NCBI GenBank assembly: GCA_958299035.1
Contig: CATQJL010000223.1
Span: 51,008,302-51,072,301, forward strand
Direction of reading: 5' to 3'
Origin: Cylicocyclus nassatus
Lineage: Eukaryota; Nematoda; Chromadorea; Rhabditida; Strongylidae
Length of the DNA stretch: 64,000 nt
A program made the position numbers and the translations under genes. Each line of letters begins with the position of its first letter. Within the stretch, counting starts at the first letter, position 1. Shown here piece after piece: positions 21,738-61,600 of the stretch. The notes beneath the pieces are model-generated. The model was not told the DNA's origin and ran no database searches. It saw nothing but the letters and a program-made list of their open reading frames with translations.

Positions 21738-22054
21738 CTCAGACAATCGCCGGGGGCAGGCGGGCACCGGAAAAATAGATTGCTGATCTCTCGCACCACG
21801 CTCGCGGATTTTTTGGAAAGCGATCAGGACTTTTCGGAAGACCGCTTGCTGAGTTCTCGATCCCTCAGAGATTCAGCAATATATCTGTAAGAAATAAGAG
21901 CGAAAAAAATTCAACAGGCGGTCTCTCAAAAATCCGCTGGCTCAGTGGGCGGTCTTCCGAAAAGTCCTGATTGCTTTGCAAAAAATCCGCGAGCGGGGTG
22001 CGAGATATCAGCAATCTATTTTTCCGGTGCCCGCCTGCCCTCAGCGATTGTCTG
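21738..22054. mobile_element. GC-rich fold-back element, first copy
   Basis: It begins CTCAGACAATCGCCGGGGGC and ends in the inverse. The arms run over 100 bp (GCACCGGAAAAATAGATTGC and inverse) and meet near the centre, so nearly the whole element is a hairpin. Non-coding. Confidence 0.75.
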
Positions 22055-22118
22055 AGGAGAGACCTGTTCTTATATAAACTCGACCACCCGAACACGAGAA
22101 AAATTTTGCGACCAAAGA

Positions 22119-22698
22119 ACTCAGATAATCGCCGGGGGCAGGCGGTCCGCAAACTCGCGCTTTTCTGCAGGCGGTCAGCAGAATTTTGGGGCGTGGCCAA
22201 ACCTTCAGCGGGCGGTACTTCCGCGTTCTGCCAGCGGGCAGCAATACAGAATTTTCTGCGAGCGCTCGTCAAATAATATCTTCCAGCGAGCGCTGGCCAA
22301 ACTTTCAGCAAGCGCACGGACTCTTTTTAGGTATTTTCGGGCGTACGTCGAGCGCAGGTAAGACTCTGTGTGGCAGAGGTGTCACCGTTGGTTTAATTAC
22401 TCAAGTTTGAGGTACTTTCTCTCAGCGGAAAGTACCTGGGGGTTGCGCGGTCCTCCACAAAGGAACGTGCGGCCCTCGAAATTTTTGCATATTCTCGCGG
22501 AAAGTCCGCGAGAATGCGGCCACTGCACCGCAGCTAATCCATAAAGAAACCGCGATTGTTCTTCAAGCATTCGTCTTTAATTTTGCCAACTTTTTTCCAA
22601 ATTTCTGCAAGCGGGCCGCAAAAAACCAACGAACTATTTTTCCGGTGCGCGCTTGCTCAAAATTCGCATGGCCGCCTGCCCCCGGCGGTTATCTGAGG
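22119..22698. mobile_element. GC-rich inverted-end element carrying a spliced-leader RNA gene
   Basis: It has the same CTCAGATAATCGCCGGGG termini as the element beside it, inverted at 22675-22698. Unlike that copy, only about 30 bp of the ends pair. The interior holds the SL RNA gene at 22390-22517 plus GC-rich GCGAGCG/GCGGGC repeats. The host element is non-coding for protein. Confidence 0.65.
22390..22517 (+). ncRNA. spliced-leader RNA (SL1 variant)
   Basis: The first 22 nt (22390-22411) match nematode SL1 except for one C-to-T change at position 12. They are followed at once by a splice donor (GTACTT), as in all SL RNAs. Then come helix I (22411-22419 with 22428-22436, 9 perfect pairs), helix II (22443-22454 with 22461-22472, 12 positions with one mismatch and GU pairs), an Sm-type site AAATTTTTG at 22479-22487, and helix III (22491-22501 with 22505-22515, 11 perfect pairs). 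Leader, donor, Sm site and terminal hairpin in this order are the full architecture of an SL RNA, which donates its leader to pre-mRNAs by trans-splicing. It is slightly longer than the ~100-nt C. elegans SL1 RNA. The TTACTCAAG part resembles SL2. Whether it is transcribed is unknown, and no upstream PSE could be recognised. Confidence 0.82.
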
Positions 22699-22822
22699 AA
22701 CCTACCGTTTTGCTCCTCACGTAAAAGCACTTGTGGAAGAGCGACCAATTCGCGAGGCTCAGTGCGCGACTGAGCTACTTGTTTGAAGAAAGAGATGCGT
22801 CTTGTACTTGTGAAACTAGGGC

Positions 22823-23809: not shown

Positions 23810-24161
23810 TCTTATATATAAAGCTGAATGTCTGTATGTCTGTATGTCTGTCTGTCTGTATGTCTGTACGTATGTGCGAAATAGAAATTTTTATTTCTGA
23901 ACCGATTTGGACCAAACTTGGCACACATATACTTCGGGACAGGGAGCGTGCCATAGGCTACTTTTCGTTATCGATCGATATCGATTTTATCGATTTTTTG
24001 CAAAATTTGAGCTAGGGGGCTGGGATTTTGCACTCAAATTTTGCAAAAAATCGATAAAATCGACATCGATCGATAACGAAAAGTGGACTATGACACGCTT
24101 CCTGCCCCGAAGTGTATGTGTGCAAAGTTTGGTCCCGGGCGGAGCCGGGTTTGCCATCTAG
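23810..24161 (+). mobile_element. Helitron-like element, family H1, complete short copy
   Basis: It begins TCTTATATATAAAGCTGAAT after an A and ends GGCGGAGCCGGG...CTAG before a T, the Helitron A|TC...CTRR|T rule. A GC-rich inverted pair (CCCGG...CCGGG) lies just before the end. The interior has TGTCTGTA repeats at the 5' side and an inverted pair of ATCGATAAAATCG-rich arms at the centre. It is 352 bp with no RepHel protein, so non-autonomous. Confidence 0.85.
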
Positions 24162-24208
24162 TCTTATATATAAAGCTGAATGTCTGTTTGTATGTATGTC
24201 TGTCTGTA

Positions 24209-24305
<97 letters not shown>

Positions 24306-24841
24306 TACGTATGTTCCGAATAGAAAATTCCATTTCTGAACCGATCCGGACCAAACTTGGCCCACATACACTACGGGCCCCGGCGGGTGTCATAGGCTAC
24401 TTTTCGTCATCGATCGATATCGATTTTATCGATTTTTTGCAAAATTTGAGCTACGGGGCTGGGAGTTGGCACAGGGGGGTAAGTGAGCGTGGGGATTCCG
24501 AATACAATATTAGTTTTTAAAATCGTGCATTACTTTTATCGATTTTATCGATTTTTTTGCAGAGTTTGAGCTACGGGGCTGGGATTTGGCACAGGGTAAT
24601 CGAGCATGCTGATCACCCCCGTGGGGGTGATCAGCATGCTCGATTACCCCCCTGTGCCAACTCCCAGCCCCGTAGCTCAAATTTTGCGAAAAATCGATAA
24701 AATTGACATCGATCGATAACGAAAAGTGGACTGTGACACCCGCCGGGGCCCGAAGTGTATGTGTGCCAAGTTTGATTCGGATAGGTTAAAAAATGGAATT
24801 TTCTATTCGGAACATACGGCGGAGCCGGGTAAGCCAGCTAG
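24162..24841 (+). mobile_element. Helitron-like element, family H1, second copy head-to-tail
   Basis: It starts TCTTATATATAAAG directly after the CTAG of the preceding copy and ends GGCGGAGCCGGGTAAGCC...CTAG before T. It contains an expanded (TGTC)n tract and a hairpin centred near 24620 (GAGCATGCTGATCACCCCC and inverse), around which the ATCGAT-rich sub-terminal blocks are arranged as inverted copies. Non-coding. Confidence 0.85.
24198..24304. repeat. (TGTC)n microsatellite inside a Helitron
   Basis: About 26 near-perfect tetranucleotide units expanded from the TGTCTGTATG motif at the element's 5' side. Shorter versions occur in every H1 copy. Confidence 0.95.
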
Positions 24842-42353: not shown

Positions 42354-42413
42354 AAACACGAAGGCCGACACAGTGCTTCGCTCTAATAGCAGCACGAAAA
42401 GGATCACTACACA

Positions 42414-43451
42414 ATGATGCTGATTCCTCGCCACTACGTAGAAGAAATTAGATGGCACACCAAAGAACTCACGAAAGTACTGCAAGAGTATGCATGCCAA
42501 GGTGAGAAAACCGCACTTCCAGAGGATGACGAACTGCGACGAAAATTTTGCGCCTACAATCTGCGTGTATCGACAAGGATTATCAAGGAAGTCGAAGAGA
42601 ATTCACAGTCATTACAAACGGAAATCGATCTACTGGAGCAGCTGTATTTGAAACAAACGAAAATGATGAGGAAGGTTATGGTAAAGGAGCTTGACGCGCT
42701 TGAAGAAGAAATCAGGTACTTTCAAGCTATGTTCGATGCCGAAATGTTCGTTAACAAGCTGCATGATCGAGTACTGGAATGCGAGATAGAACTATCTAGA
42801 CTGGAACGCAGAAAATCGTTCAATTCATTGCGGAACAACAGTAGACCCGAGCATACTTCTACGAAACCAGCAAACAAGGAAGATACTCATATTGGGACCT
42901 CACACACTAGGAGAATCATTGCTGTGGACAGCCCACCATCAGCTGTCGATAAACTACAGCAAGATTCTAGCATAACAATCATTTTAAGTCTCAAAGGAAA
43001 TGATCAAATCGCTACAACAGAAGCGGAATTATCGCAAGACATCAAGCTGGAGAAAGCAGATCCAGAAAAGGAAAACAACAAGCAATACGATAGGATTGAT
43101 CGATGCAATACAAACAAGGTCCTATCTGCATGTGAGGTATCTTTGCAGGTCATGTTGCCCACGGCTACCACAAAGGTAGAGAGAGCCGATACCGAAGATG
43201 GAAAGTCAATGCCTTCAAATTCAACTACGAGTATTCAAAGTGTGAACGTTTCGAGACTCAACTGCATGTGCCATAATCGATGTACTAACTTCAACATTTC
43301 TACTGAAACCTGCTTTCTCCAATCGTCTGCCTCCTGCCGTCGCTACATCCACTCATGCTTCGCGGATATCAACACAGTCGAAGCGATATGCGCCGCTCAC
43401 CAACGACCACTACTCTATCCAGACAAAAGAAGAATTTGCGAGCAGGAGTAA
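42414..43451 (+). CDS. Gag-like coiled-coil protein of the LTR element
   Basis: 345 residues, uninterrupted, the longest frame in the window. It is charged and helical: residues about 35-140 are rich in Glu/Lys/Leu heptads and predict a coiled coil. A Ser/Thr-rich linker of about 170 residues follows. A cysteine cluster near residues 285-320 (CMCHNRC, then further Cys) lacks the spacing of a standard CCHC zinc knuckle. The position between the LTRs marks it as the element's structural protein. No homologue was recognised by eye. It starts at ATG 42414, where a second ATG is adjacent (MM). Confidence 0.8.
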   Translation: MMLIPRHYVEEIRWHTKELTKVLQEYACQGEKTALPEDDELRRKFCAYNLRVSTRIIKEVEENSQSLQTEIDLLEQLYLKQTKMMRKVMVKELDALEEEIRYFQAMFDAEMFVNKLHDRVLECEIELSRLERRKSFNSLRNNSRPEHTSTKPANKEDTHIGTSHTRRIIAVDSPPSAVDKLQQDSSITIILSLKGNDQIATTEAELSQDIKLEKADPEKENNKQYDRIDRCNTNKVLSACEVSLQVMLPTATTKVERADTEDGKSMPSNSTTSIQSVNVSRLNCMCHNRCTNFNISTETCFLQSSASCRRYIHSCFADINTVEAICAAHQRPLLYPDKRRICEQE

Positions 43452-55600: not shown

Positions 55601-58600
55601 CGCGCGCGTTCCTTTATACTCGATCCGTGCCGCCCGCGCACCTGCAATTATCACATGCTGTAAGCGCAAGGAATAGCCGCGTAGTGTGCGACGCAGTGGT
55701 AAGGCTGCCTCATCAATCAAGAGGTTAGGTATCACATCTTACGAGGGAAGGATACTTGGTGACCGTGACCTTTTGCAATGAGATGTATACCAGAAGGTGC
55801 GCCTTGGAACGCTGATTCTAAATCTATGTTCATTGCCTGCTGTGAGACTCCCTGAACGAAGTTATGGACTTTTCTCCATATTGATTTCGCGAGATTTAGG
55901 CAGTCAAAATCGTCAGTATCCCAGCTTTTTGGATTCTTATGTATCGGTGATGGTTTTCCTGAGCTTAACGTAAAGCTTTACTCTATCTGTACGCTTTTTG
56001 GTAGTGCGTAAGCGAACATTCCAACGATATTGGTGAATCCTGCATCACAAACAGAGCAAATTTTGGTGACAAGAAATGTTCATAACTTCTTTCGGAAGAG
56101 TGCACAGCACATAACGAAAACAGATTTGGAATCAGCGCTTCAAGATGCATTTAATGGTGTTCGTTTCATTTCGAAAGGCCACGGTCACCAAGTATCCTTT
56201 CCTTGTTAGTGTATGATTCGGAGAAACAGAAGTTGTCTTTTGCTTCCAAATGTTAACCTTCGGTAGCATTGCGAATGGGTGCTGAGCTTGAATTTTTGGA
56301 TCCAAATACGAAGTCATATTTTTTTGGCGTAAGTGTAGAGTTGATTATCAAGATGTGCAGCATACAGCGTAACGAAGAACTGGGAAATGGCAGCCATCCG
56401 CGGACCAGCAGCAGCGGCGCGGCATCCAATGTCCCGCCACCCGCGCACTAGATGTTGCGCCAACGTGTGACTGCAAGCGCGCTGCCCGCTCCAAGTGCCT
56501 GAGCAGGCGGTTAGTTTCCCAGCTATATTTCTTGCTTGTGGTCAAACGTCATGGGTTCGCACTTGCGCGATGGTATGTCCGAGGGGCCCTCTTTCACACC
56601 ATATTGAAGTCGCAAAACCTCCATCTTTCCGGACGCTGGTTTTAAGTGCTAACGTAAGGGTTTATTAGGCAACTCAGACTAAGAATTGTGTGGCAGAAGA
56701 TGGTCAAGAAAGTTTGTTACGGAGTATAGTTGGCAGCACGGAATCGCCCGATTGAACGCCCGCGCGCGTGTCTCTGGTGGGCTAACATTGGCATTTGCGC
56801 ATGAGTCATCATAGCGCCTGTACATGGCATTCGCGTTGCAGGCAGCTCGCGAGCGTTCAGTCTACAGCGACCCGGGCGATTTGGTGCAGTCGAGTTTACC
56901 ATGAGATTGAAAGATAATGGAACTCAGTATGAAAAGGGTTTCTTGGTGCTGGTACTATACTGATCGTACTGACAAGGGAATGGTCAGAAGTCGAAGTGGC
57001 CAAACCAGAGAAGCTGTATATCATTCGATGCAGTATAAAACGCTGACTTCGAATCTGTCTTCCTTATCTGCTTCCCGCTTTTGTGGACGAAGCTACAAGG
57101 GGTTTTATTGTGAAATAATCATACATAAAAACAGCAAAACTGAGCACATTATTGCGCTTTTAGCTTAGCTTCTGGCTTTAAATTTTAAGTAAGCTAGCTG
57201 CATGTTTTGGCCCAGCATTGAGGCGAACGTGGCTCTATACGGCTAAATTTTCAATTTCACGCATAATTTCTTAGCCAAATAACGGTCTTTAATGGCTTAT
57301 AGCTTCGTCCAGAAAAGCGATAAGCAGGTAAGGAAGACAGATTTAGAGTCAGCGCTTCATGCTGCATCTAACGGTATGCAGCTTGTCTGGAATGGCCACT
57401 TCGATTTTTGACCATTCCCTTGTGAGCATGAGTACGAATTGAGTGTGCAGTGAGACCTTACATAGGGTATCACCCAACAAAGGGAAAGGGATTGGATGGA
57501 AGCAAAACTCAAACAAAATCAGATAATGACCGTAAACTGATATCTGCGCTAATTGCCGTACTTCAAACATCTAGGTGGTATTTAATAATTACTGAACCCA
57601 AAATGACAATGTAGCAAACTTCTAGATTCAATTTTATCAAGAATAGCAAACATCACGGCGTCTCAACCATGTTACTTTCAGAATGTCACATCACAAAAGA
57701 GTTGACAACATTCAACGGAATTACGAACTGTAAAATAATCAGTGGCAATATAACTATTTCAAGCTCGATCGAGAATCCGCCAGCAAATTTCCGACTGCAG
57801 AAAATTAGTGGCTGCTTGAGAATAGATGGTACAAACATCACTAATATAGATTTCCTATCAGATGTGACCTATGGTCAAGTAACATGCACTCGAGGAAAGC
57901 ACGGTAGGTTCTTGGCGAAAAATAGGCCATGCTTTTGTATCTCTTGTGTCCATTGATCTTATATATAAAGCTGAATGTCTGTTTGTATGTATGTATGTAT
58001 GTATGTATGTATGTCTGTATGTCTGTCTGTGTGTACGTATGTTCCGAATAGAAAATTCCATTTCTGAACCGATCCGGACCAAACTTGGCACACATACACT
58101 TCGGGCCCCGGCGCGTGTCATAGGCTACTTTTCGTCATCGATCGATATCGATTTTATCGATTTTTATCGATTTTTTTGCTGAGTTCACCTACGGGGCTGG
58201 GAGTTGGCACAGGGGGGTAATCGAGCATGGGGATTCCGAATACAATATTGGTTTTCAGGATTATCGATTACTTTTATCGATTTTATCGATTTTTTTGCAA
58301 ATTTTGAGCTACGGGGCTGGGAGTTGGCACAGGGGGGTAATCGAGCATGGGGATTCCGAATACAATATTGGTTTTCAGGATTATCGATTACTTTTATCGA
58401 TTTTATCGATTTTTTTGCAAAGTTTGAGCTACGGGGCTGGGAGTTCGCACAGGGGGGTAATCGAGCATGGGGATTCCGAATACAATATTGGTTTTCAGGA
58501 TTATCGATTACTTTTATCGATTTTATCGATTTTTTTGCAAAGTTTGAGCTAGGGGGCTGGGAGTTGGCACAGGGGGGTAATCGAGCATGCTGATCATCCC

Positions 58601-61600
58601 CAAGGGGGGTGATCAGCATGCTCGAACACCCCTGTGCCAAATTCCAGCCCCCTAGCTCAAATTTTCAAAAAATCGATAAAATCGATAAAAGTAATGGACG
58701 ATCTTGAAAACTAATATTGTATTCGTAATCTGCATGCTCGATTACCCTCTGTGCAAACTCCCAGCCCCGCAGGTCAAACTTTGCAAAATCGATAAAATCG
58801 ATAAAAGTAATGGACGATCCTGAAAACTAATATTGTGTTCGTGATCAGCATGCTCGATTACCCCCCTGTGCAAAATCCCAGCCTCGCATGTCAAAATTTA
58901 CAAAAAATCGATAAAATCAATAAAAGCAATCGATAATTCTGAAAACTAATATTGTATTCGGAATCCCCATGCTCACTTCCCCCCTGTGCCAACTCCTAGC
59001 CCTGTAGGTGAACTCTGCCAAAAAATCGATAAAAATCGGTAAAATCGACATCGATCGATAACGAAAAGTGGACTGTGACACCCGCCGGGGCCCGAAGTGT
59101 ATGTGTGCCAAGTTTGGTCCGGATACGGCGGAGCCGGGTAAGCCAGCTAGTATTTCATAAGTACAATGTTCTAGTAGATTTTTAACATTGCAAAAATATT
59201 GTTCATAGCTAATTTCTAGAAATTCACAATAACAAGAAACTTTGTGTTAAGAAAAATCTCCTTAGCAATGACAAACTTGACTTTCAAAATAATATGGATC
59301 CAATATGTAGTACGTTAAATTTCATTCTCATCGCTATTATGAATTGTATAGCTCAAAATTTCCAGATAGCGCATGTCGGGCCCGTCCAATTACTTCAGAG
59401 ACTATCAGTAGTTTTCAAAACTGCAAGAAAATCTTGGGAAACTTGGAGATTATAGGATGGCCAGGTTATTTTTGAACAAAAGAGCATGAAGAACACTAGT
59501 ATTCATGGGTTTCAGAAGACGTATCCCAGCTTCAGCAAGCATTTGGTAACGTCGAGGAAATTCATGGACAGTTGTTGATTACTAACACATCTATCAAATC
59601 GACCGCAGACATTTTTAAGTCACTACGAGTTGTCGAAAACCACGGTCCAACGGGTAGTCGGTCTCAAATTCACAATTTTGGACGTACACGACTCTTTCAG
59701 GAGCTGTTATCATCAAGGATAATTCAAATCTGGAATTAATTCAGATAGATTCTTTAGAAAGCATTCATTCTGATCAGAAAACAGCAGTCATCATCCAACA
59801 GCCAAAAGCGATTATCACATCGGTAAGACAGCTCCAGTGATGACTTCTACCTGGACTATTACTCCAGCCCAAATCGGTGCATACTGAGATTTGACCAGAG
59901 TTTTGAGGAAAATTATTCACTTTGTGGGACAAAAAATATAATAAACATACCGAATATTTCAATCGCTTACTTCCTCAGAAAGGACACATTGCTACTTGCT
60001 TAACGTTCAAAAAACAATGGATTGATCTGATTTCACCTGAAAAACTGAAAGCGTATCCCTGCTATCGCCTCACACAGTAATTTGCGACTCTGTTGAAAAC
60101 AATGTTTCCTTTTTGCAGAAAACAAGCTACAGGTTGCGCGTTTCCACCTCAGGAAAGGTAGAACTAAAAGCCATGGTTTCTAATCCGGATGAAGGAGGTA
60201 TGGTACCCTACTTTGTTTCTAACACATTGAACGTATGATAGACTAGCTGGCTTCTATGGAGGGCTCGGCACGAGCTGACACTAGGGAAATTTTCAAAACG
60301 AAGTCCCCTCTGGTCTTGAAAATTTCGCACGAATTCCTCTTTGACCCTGAACTCTAAATGTAAAAACCCTAAAAAACGAAACGCGGACTCAAAAAAAAGA
60401 AAAAAACGTCGCAACTTTGTGTCTTCTCGGCCACAAAAAATCCATTTACTTTTTGTCGCAAAAACGATGCGCAGCTTCGCCCGGTGCCAACTGTGCCCAG
60501 CCCTGTTCATAGTACCCGGTAACTGAATTGGTCAACACACAACGGAGGCTTTAACATACTAACATACAAGCATACTTAAGAATTTCGAGTTTTACATATG
60601 TAGAAATTGAGGTAATCACATTATGGGCATATTTTACCGTACCGCCGCAGTAAAAATAGCTTCTCACAAATAAATTTTACAAATGTGACCTGTCTAATTT
60701 TCATCAAAATTTACTTGGGATGACAACTAGCTTCACCTTACAAAACTTGAATTTGCTAGAACTAATAGCCCTATGTAAGACTGACCTGTTAAATTGAAGC
60801 TCAGTAAACCAGTCATTTTAAGGACTGATTGTTCTGTACGTCCTCTATGCAGTTATTCTTCTCATTGTTAACATTTTCCTCATCGCTGGGTTCGTATACA
60901 TAATATTTGTACAGGTACATATTTCTATTAGGTTGTCCGGAAATTAATGCCCGTTTTGAATTTCAACCGCAATAAGTAATACACCTCTCACTTCTAAATA
61001 GGATGCAGAGTACCATTCGATAGAGTAAAGCAAGCTCTACAAAAACGCCATATTGCTTTTGCAACAGCTTTCATCCACCTCGAGTTTCAAGCCAACTAAA
61101 AAGACTCAGCAGCCCGAAAAGTCGAAAAAAATCGTAACTCAGTTTACAAAAATCCTACAAAAATTCTTACTTGCTCATGTAAACACTATTCACATAAGAC
61201 ATCTATATACGCCTTTGCCGTATTTTTTTCTCTGCTAGAAATCAAGAAAACGGAAATTTTCGCGCATTTGCCATTTGCCGTGTTGTGCCGTCCTCACATA
61301 GATAGTTGTATACTACAAACCTGTAGAAGTGCAAACGTAAATCCTCAGCTCTCTATAAGCTTTAATTCTCAAGAAATTTGAATTTTAGCTTGGACCACCT
61401 AACTAAGGAAAGCTATATTCGGTATTTCTCGAGAACTAAAGCTTGTAGAGAGCTGAAAATTTAAGTCTGTACTTCTGCAGGCTTGTGGTATACAATTACC
61501 TATGTGGGGACGGCACAGCATCACTTTGGCAAATGCACGAAAATTTCCGTTTTCTTGGTTTCTAACGGAGGGAAAAATGACAAAGGCGTATATAGATGTT

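What the first reader, a model, noticed from the sequence alone, without database searches (positions are those of the whole stretch)
22390..22517. Variant SL1 spliced-leader RNA gene carried inside a transposon-like element
The sequence shows a 22-nt leader one base off SL1, a donor directly after it, three helices (the third with 11 perfect pairs) and an Sm-type site in the right order. SL1 genes usually sit in 5S rDNA clusters and SL2-type genes are dispersed as plain genes. Here the gene lies within a GC-rich inverted-end element (22119-22698), itself nested in another. A mobile carrier could multiply and diversify SL RNAs. The C-to-T change gives TTACTCAAG, the 3' part of SL2.
Basis: partly seen in the sequence, partly recalled or inferred. 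Interest (0 to 1): 0.88.

Follow-up and report, generated by a model that had tools for sequence, protein, structure and literature searches.

The report
Transposon carrying a spliced-leader RNA gene
In this roundworm genome a small jumping DNA element carries a complete-looking copy of the gene for the short RNA leader that worms splice onto their messages, and it has spread to about a thousand places; whether those copies are used is not yet known.

Summary
In detail: a 22-nt leader one base off SL1, an adjacent GT donor, three hairpins and an Sm site, inside a 578-bp element (22120-22697) with 26-bp inverted ends. It belongs to a large transposon family: the exact variant leader+GT occurs 1047 times in the 514.7-Mb genome (control 0), and of 118 such places in fetched loci none looked like anything but this element. 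Of 100 copies with standard ends, 87 have matching 2-bp target duplications (14.3 by shuffling). It is not nested here; it lies beside a second foldback element with the same ends. The cargo derives from the host SL1 lineage, whose genes also form separate 680-bp tandem arrays. Private mutations fall equally on leader, SL body and flanks (about 2% per site per copy), so single copies are unselected; variants that spread through lineages spare the leader and mostly keep the hairpins paired (p=0.0025). Use on mRNAs is not shown: in an LTR-type context the canonical leader occurs 142 times and the variant 0 times, with 4 exceptions elsewhere. Promoter evidence is inconclusive. Most likely a non-autonomous DNA transposon captured an SL1 RNA gene; it is possibly transcribed, with no sign of major use.

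The parts
22120..22697 (+). Non-autonomous DNA transposon copy, 578 bp, termini CTCAG...CTGAG
   Evidence: Full-length matches in 28 of 28 fetched copies that had an identical SL region; ends CTCAG..CTGAG in 100 of 111 unique full-length copies
22120..22145 (+). Left terminal inverted repeat, 26 nt
   Evidence: 96% complementary to 22672-22697; no variant of >=10% in 26 sites across 99 copies
22672..22697 (-). Right terminal inverted repeat, 26 nt
   Evidence: 1 variant of >=10% in 26 sites
22117..22119 (.). Left copy of 3-bp target-site duplication GAA
   Evidence: Read directly; 2-bp duplications are the rule in the family and 3-bp ones the minority
22698..22700 (.). Right copy of 3-bp target-site duplication GAA
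22390..22411 (+). Variant SL1 leader (C12T)
   Evidence: 21/22 to SL1; exact leader+GT 1047 times in the genome, reversed control 0
22412..22413 (+). Splice donor GT directly after the leader
   Evidence: 37 exact variant leaders in the genome are followed by a non-G base, 33 of them element copies with a changed donor region
22410..22437 (+). Hairpin I, 11 bp, contains the donor
   Evidence: Fold; double change U-A to C-G at SL positions 27/42 in 2 of 78 copies
22438..22477 (+). Hairpin II
   Evidence: Fold; pair 50/87 is G-U 43, G-C 20, A-U 11, other 4 of 78
22479..22487 (+). Sm-type site AAATTTTTG (other lineages AAAATTTTG)
22490..22516 (+). Hairpin III, 11 Watson-Crick pairs plus G-U
   Evidence: Fold; no variant of >=10% in the 28 sites of element positions 371-398
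22343..22350 (+). Possible PSE-like core GTACGTCG at -47 (weak)
   Evidence: Within 1 nt of the register of the U2 and host SL1 cores by eye; position-weight score in fixed register not significant (p=0.42)
21738..22056 (.). Neighbouring foldback element with the same TIR family and no SL leader, flanked by GAG/GAG
   Evidence: Arms of 116 nt, 92% complementary; side by side with the SL element, not around it; flanks read

Best explanation
A short non-autonomous cut-and-paste DNA transposon (26-bp TIRs, 2-bp and sometimes 3-bp target duplications) captured an SL1-type spliced-leader RNA gene of the host and amplified it to about 1000 or more copies, using a transposase supplied in trans (inferred; none was looked for). 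Shown: the mobility anatomy, the copy number, derivation from the SL1 RNA lineage, neutral decay of single copies, and preservation of leader and most RNA pairing among variants that spread. Inferred: active source copies make or made a structured, Sm-binding SL-like RNA, and lineages that lose it spread less; most copies are passengers. Donation of the variant leader to mRNAs is at most minor in the only germline record I could read.
For: Exact leader+GT 1047 times (511 +, 536 -), reversed control 0. Of 118 leader+GT places in fetched loci, 116 pass a simple test for the element and the other 2 (in L005 and L094) are diverged copies by eye. Of the 40 best matches to the 128 nt, on 6 contigs, 28 were fetched and 28 are full-length elements. 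TSDs: of 100 copies with CTCAG..CTGAG ends, 87 match over 2 bp (shuffled mean 14.3) and 8 over 3 bp (1.4); 8 show neither. Body aligns with host SL1 body at score 31, mean of single-letter shuffles 3.2, 0 of 2000 as high. Private rates in 28 downstream-anchored copies: up .0209, leader .0211, body .0212, dn .0195. Variants of >=10%: leader 0 of 22 sites, body 9 of 106, up 38 of 191, dn 20 of 130. Of the 9 body variants 8 are unpaired or keep pairing, against 16 of 49 singletons, p=0.0025; with a 5% cut 15 of 20, p=0.0028. Covariation score 0.069, reached by 1 of 500 shuffles.
Against: Spread against private variants in the whole SL region compared with flanks is not significant alone (59:9 against 242:68, p=0.13; p=0.09). 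Pairing over all internal tree changes is not significant (18 kept, 11 broken against 28:37, p=0.12); only deep ones are (11:2, p=0.013). Five of 20 variants at the 5% cut break a pair. The cuts and some contrasts (leader plus hairpin III, p=0.018) were chosen after seeing data. Homoplasy on the flank tree suggests recombination between lineages, which could mimic conservation. Covariation is modest: changes on both sides at 3 pairs, which 39 of 500 shuffles reach and slid structures match or exceed (0-5 pairs); the tool warns that related sequences can beat shuffles without structure.
Confidence: 0.7

Rival explanations
1. Functional amplification: the transposon-borne genes are transcribed and donate the C12T leader to a real share of mRNAs, so the transposon has become a main source of SL RNA.
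For: 1047 exact leader+GT copies, against 470 for canonical SL1+GT; of the first 100 listed canonical places 72 lie in the two tandem arrays. Leader and most pairing kept in spreading lineages. 4 loci (3 sequence groups) with the variant leader in LTR-like contexts outside the element. A GTACGTCG core 1 nt from the U2/SL1 PSE register.
Against: In the TAAA+leader context: canonical 142, variant 0, upper 95% bound about 2-4%. Of the 37 variant leaders followed by non-G only 4 lie outside the element, and none of 118 leader+GT places in fetched loci does; the rest of the 1047 were not looked at. PWM scores for the promoter are not significant (p=0.42 and 0.46; host SL1 p=0.002 in register), and the upstream 70 nt carry many lineage variants (17 of >=10% in 70 sites). 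The predicted fold puts the donor in an 11-bp hairpin on the intron side.
Confidence: 0.2
2. Dead passenger: an SL1 pseudogene trapped in the element, with no RNA function at any stage; apparent conservation comes from recombination between lineages or from hairpins useful as DNA.
For: Equal private mutation rates in leader, body and flanks; young copies with deletions in leader, hairpin II or hairpin III (L033, L030, L035); homoplasy on the flank tree; no germline donation signal in the TAAA context; whole-SL contrast not significant.
Against: Spread variants mostly keep pairing (p=0.0025) and spare the leader (0 of 22 sites); pair 50/87 occurs as G-U, G-C and A-U and pair 27/42 as U-A and C-G. 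A DNA-hairpin role does not explain conservation of the leader, unpaired in the predicted fold.
Confidence: 0.35
3. Selfish use: the SL-like RNA or its snRNA-type promoter helps the element itself, for instance by opening germline chromatin or by tying up SL factors.
For: Constraint seen on lineages that spread and not on single copies is what selection on transposition ability predicts; the TIRs show the same pattern (1 common variant, 41 singletons in 52 sites, p=0.0014).
Against: No expression data and no mechanism tested; promoter signal weak.
Confidence: 0.2

Closest known systems
Nematode SL1 RNA genes (C. elegans ~110 copies in the 5S array; PMC1657053, passages read)
   Same: 22-nt leader, GT, three stem-loops, Sm-type site, same order; body related to the host SL1 RNA
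   Different: C12T leader, much more stable and GC-rich hairpins, dispersed on a transposon in about 1000 copies instead of a tandem array
SL2-type dispersed SL RNA genes
   Same: Dispersed genes
   Different: Leader is SL1-type; the TTACTCAAG match to C. elegans SL2 (recalled) comes from a single base, and diverged element lineages read TTACCCAAG. The host's own SL2 genes could not be searched
CACTA/EnSpm-like and other short-TSD DNA transposons (class recalled)
   Same: TIRs, 2-3-bp target duplications, subterminal repeats
   Different: Termini CTCAG rather than CACTA; no transposase known; carries an snRNA-type gene
SINEs and snRNA pseudogenes (repeats that spread small RNA genes; PMC4233971, passages read)
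   Same: A small RNA gene becomes a high-copy repeat
   Different: Spread here is by a DNA transposon with TIRs, not by retroposition of the RNA
Flatworm leader fragments in retroelements (PMC12582326, passages read)
   Same: Leader sequence in mobile elements
   Different: Those 597 loci had only partial leaders; here the whole SL RNA unit is cargo. That study set aside SL RNA candidates within 500 bases of mobile elements, with a later rescue step that ignored this, so its main filter could hide a case like this one

Membership tests
Nematode SL1-type SL RNA gene | 22-nt SL1 leader followed at once by GT | tested here: met
   21/22 and GT
Nematode SL1-type SL RNA gene | Three stem-loops with an Sm site before the third | tested here: met
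   leader unpaired in the predicted fold, unlike stem I of the Rfam SL1 model shown
Nematode SL1-type SL RNA gene | Rfam RF00198 gathering score | tested here: not met
   18 of 75 bits; the host array gene also fails at 37.5
Nematode SL1-type SL RNA gene | snRNA-type promoter (PSE) at about -60 to -40 | tested here: inconclusive
   Core-like GTACGTCG 1 nt off register; PWM p=0.42/0.46 in register
Nematode SL1-type SL RNA gene | Transcribed, capped, leader found on mRNAs | not testable with these tools
   No RNA data; indirect LTR-type record 0 against 142
Non-autonomous DNA transposon | Terminal inverted repeats | tested here: met
   26 nt, 96%
Non-autonomous DNA transposon | Short target-site duplications | tested here: met
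   Of 100 copies 87 match over 2 bp, 8 over 3 bp, 8 show neither
Non-autonomous DNA transposon | Dispersed high copy number | tested here: met
   1047 exact leader+GT; 934 matches to a downstream 24-mer with <=3 mismatches
CACTA/EnSpm superfamily | CACTA-type termini (recalled) | tested here: not met
   Termini CTCAG/CTGAG in 100 of 111 copies
CACTA/EnSpm superfamily | Related transposase on an autonomous partner | not tested
   No search for a partner was made

The most novel reading that the evidence does not exclude
A DNA transposon has taken over part of a species' SL RNA gene supply: its copies make a C12U SL RNA with an snRNP of its own, used in some tissue or stage, or used by the transposon for its own spread, so that selection on transposition maintains an snRNA.
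Probability: 0.25. Interest if true: 0.92.

Novelty: new variant of a known kind. Interest (0 to 1): 0.72.

Why it matters
How SL RNA genes spread and how new leaders arise are open questions. A DNA transposon that carries a complete SL RNA unit in about a thousand places is a direct route, and SL-gene pipelines that set aside candidates near mobile elements (PMC12582326, passages read) could miss it. It also makes testable whether a transposon can be selected to keep a small nuclear RNA.

Tried and rejected
Nested element: rejected, the two elements are neighbours. SL2 chimera: rejected. Purifying selection on single copies: rejected (one search agrees: in 17 full-length copies chosen by the upstream part, SL 2.8% and downstream 2.9% from the window copy, whose own private changes inflate the downstream figure). 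Promoter by U2 position-weight matrix: no support for the element; the host SL1 array scores in register (p=0.002) but not as best place anywhere in its 120 nt (p=0.23). 5S linkage of host SL1 arrays: no 5S in the stretches L089 and L091 at Rfam gathering. The 353-aa ORF at 42390-43448 found no relatives at E<=0.001 and no Pfam family, so it did not identify the species. Host SL2 genes and canonical leader followed by non-G did not complete. My note said 16 of 20 subfamily-B leaders are intact; searches give 15 of 20. Rows dropped: 29 copies chosen for an identical SL region were left out of the variant counts and 3 of 20 B copies (L141, L142, L158) out of the alignment; 6 of 117 copies were removed as duplicates; copies with indels in the SL unit or rows identical to others were left out of alignment A1.

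Full report
What is there. The leader GGTTTAATTACTCAAGTTTGAG at 22390-22411 is SL1 with C12 changed to T, and GT follows at once. No other stretch of the window comes within 6 mismatches of SL1. The RNA folds at z=-7.22 with three hairpins, and an Sm-type site lies before hairpin III. Rfam's SL1 model aligns end to end but at only 18 bits.

Genome. The window is G000:C223:51008302-51072301 of a 514,686,895-base assembly in 369 contigs. The exact 24-mer leader+GT occurs 1047 times, the reversed control 0. Of the 40 best matches to the 128 nt, all identical, I fetched 28; all 28 hold a full-length copy of one 578-bp element. Of the first 100 listed leader places I fetched 20, all in copies of the element, a few broken, and 16 more stretches. 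Over all fetched loci except the 37 discussed below, 118 leader+GT places were present; 116 pass a simple test for the element and the other 2 are diverged copies by eye. The remaining places of the 1047 were not looked at.

Mobility. Of 111 unique full-length copies 100 end in CTCAG..CTGAG. Of these 100, 87 match over 2 flanking bases, against a shuffled mean of 14.3, 8 match over 3 bases, against 1.4, and 8 show neither. TA and TG are the commonest 2-bp duplications (23 and 17 of 83). The window copy has GAA on both sides. Copies have inserted into other copies (L001, L012, L014, L025, L027). The 319-bp foldback element at 21738-22056 shares the ends and lies beside, not around, the SL element.

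Origin of the cargo. Canonical SL1+GT occurs 470 times; 100 places were listed, of which 51 form one tandem array and 21 the listed part of a second one on contig C1, both with a 680-bp period. These are ordinary SL1 RNA genes (37.5 bits to Rfam SL1). No 5S RNA was found in the array stretches L089 and L091 at gathering. The body of the element's SL unit aligns with the array SL1 body at score 31 against a mean of 3.2 for single-letter shuffles, with 0 of 2000 as high; GTA.TTTCT after the leader and the Sm neighbourhood are shared. Diverged lineages of the element read TTACCCAAG as SL1 does (L003, L115, L124). The unit therefore derives from SL1, and the resemblance to SL2 is a one-base coincidence.

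Selection on single copies. In 28 copies found by a downstream anchor outside the SL unit, private changes per site are .0209 upstream.0211 in the leader.0212 in the body and .0195 downstream. Copies found by the upstream part give the same picture, with deletions in leader and hairpins. In loci chosen by a part outside the SL unit, an exact leader+GT is still present in 12 of 20, 20 of 30 and 15 of 20 (a locus may hold more than one copy).

Selection on lineages. I compared singletons with variants carried by at least 10% of copies, in 99 copies after leaving out 29 that had been chosen for an identical SL region. Spread variants: leader 0 of 22 sites (66 copies not chosen by the leader), body 9 of 106, upstream 38 of 191, downstream 20 of 130. 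The 9 body variants are loop or single-strand changes or keep a pair, except one (C76A). Of 49 body singletons 33 break a pair. Compatible against broken is 8:1 for spread and 16:33 for private variants, p=0.0025. With a 5% cut it is 15:5, p=0.0028; counting paired sites only, kept against broken is 7:5 and 8:33, p=0.024. The TIRs, which a transposon needs, behave alike (41 singletons, 1 spread; p=0.0014 against flanks), and leader plus hairpin III show 20 and 0 (p=0.018, chosen after seeing the profile). Weaker results must be told: the whole SL unit against flanks is not significant (p=0.13; p=0.09), nor is pairing over all internal tree changes (p=0.12, against p=0.013 for deep ones). On 78 copies 96.8% of pair cells are standard (15 of 500 shuffles reach this), the covariation score is reached by 1 of 500 shuffles, and changes on both sides occur at 3 pairs, which 39 of 500 shuffles reach and which slid structures match or exceed (0-5 pairs). 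Recombination between lineages is likely and could add to apparent conservation.

Is the leader used? No RNA data are at hand. An indirect record may exist. Of the first 20 dispersed canonical SL1+GT places (L069-L088), 14 have TAAA within 7 bases before the leader and 15 have GTGGC[A/C] within 130 bases after it (sequences). Three pairs lie 7.8-9.7 kb apart in the same orientation, and 3 of 7 ORFs scanned match DUF1759 (PF03564), a family I recall from BEL/Pao LTR retrotransposons. If the leader there comes from trans-splicing, these elements record donation; if it is merely inherited, they do not. In the context TAAA+leader the canonical leader occurs 142 times (9 of them are among the loci I read) and the variant 0 times; the 95% upper bound is 2% if sites are independent and 4% if they come in pairs. 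The variant leader is followed by a non-G base at only 37 places. All 37 were fetched: the script called 32 element copies, I add L190 by eye, and 4 (L184, L185, L196, L202) look like LTRs. These 4 may be point mutations of the canonical leader or rare donations.

Promoter. Of 20 U2 genes read, out of the 46 listed (not L160) share by eye a PSE-like block with a core near -46. In that register the host SL1 array fits (p=0.002) and the element does not (p=0.42 and 0.46), although a GTACGTCG or GTACGCCG core lies one base off. The upstream 70 nt are not conserved between lineages (17 spread variants in 70 sites). This is inconclusive and leans against a standard promoter.

Reading. The best-supported account is a non-autonomous DNA transposon with a captured SL1 RNA gene. 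Most copies are passengers. The lineages that spread kept the leader, most of the pairing and the Sm core, which suggests that the RNA mattered at least in source copies. I hold active donation to mRNAs as unproven and probably minor.

Literature. Nothing in print on an SL RNA gene carried by a DNA transposon was seen in the listings (0 papers; 20 of 378 listed; 15 of 46; 10 of 16; 10 of 221); the library is open-licence PMC only. Passages were read in PMC1657053, PMC7986045, PMC7346339, PMC12582326, PMC4233971, PMC11822377 and PMC7652881. PMC12582326 sets aside SL RNA candidates near mobile elements in its main filter.

Noticed in passing
L069-L088 (first 20 dispersed canonical SL1+GT hits on contig C1), e.g. 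L076/L077, L072/L073, L081/L082: LTR-retrotransposon-like repeats, 3 of 7 scanned ORFs with a DUF1759 match, carry a perfect canonical SL1 leader in what looks like the LTR, in 14 of 20 after a TAAA end and in 15 of 20 before a GTGGC motif. Several unrelated families share only the 22-mer, as if the trans-spliced leader served as the R region (142 TAAA+SL1 sites).
   Followed up: partly
L090 (G000:C1:31164700-31167000): A palindromic repeat holds eight canonical SL1 leaders in both orientations, about 65-82 bp apart within clusters: a second repeat family that contains SL1. Whether it has an Sm site was not tested.
   Followed up: no
L184, L185, L196, L202: The variant (C12T) leader outside the element in LTR-like contexts; L196 and L202 look like one family, with a short duplication of the leader end.
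   Followed up: partly
G000:C1:30138576-30172831 and from C1:31608642: Host SL1 genes sit in 680-bp tandem arrays with no 5S RNA found in the stretches read, unlike the 5S-SL1 array of C. elegans.
   Followed up: partly
window 24012-24520 and 58124-58664: A simple repeat that reads QTDR/CLSV in its frames, and a tandem repeat of about 120 bp, both visible in the ORF list.
   Followed up: no
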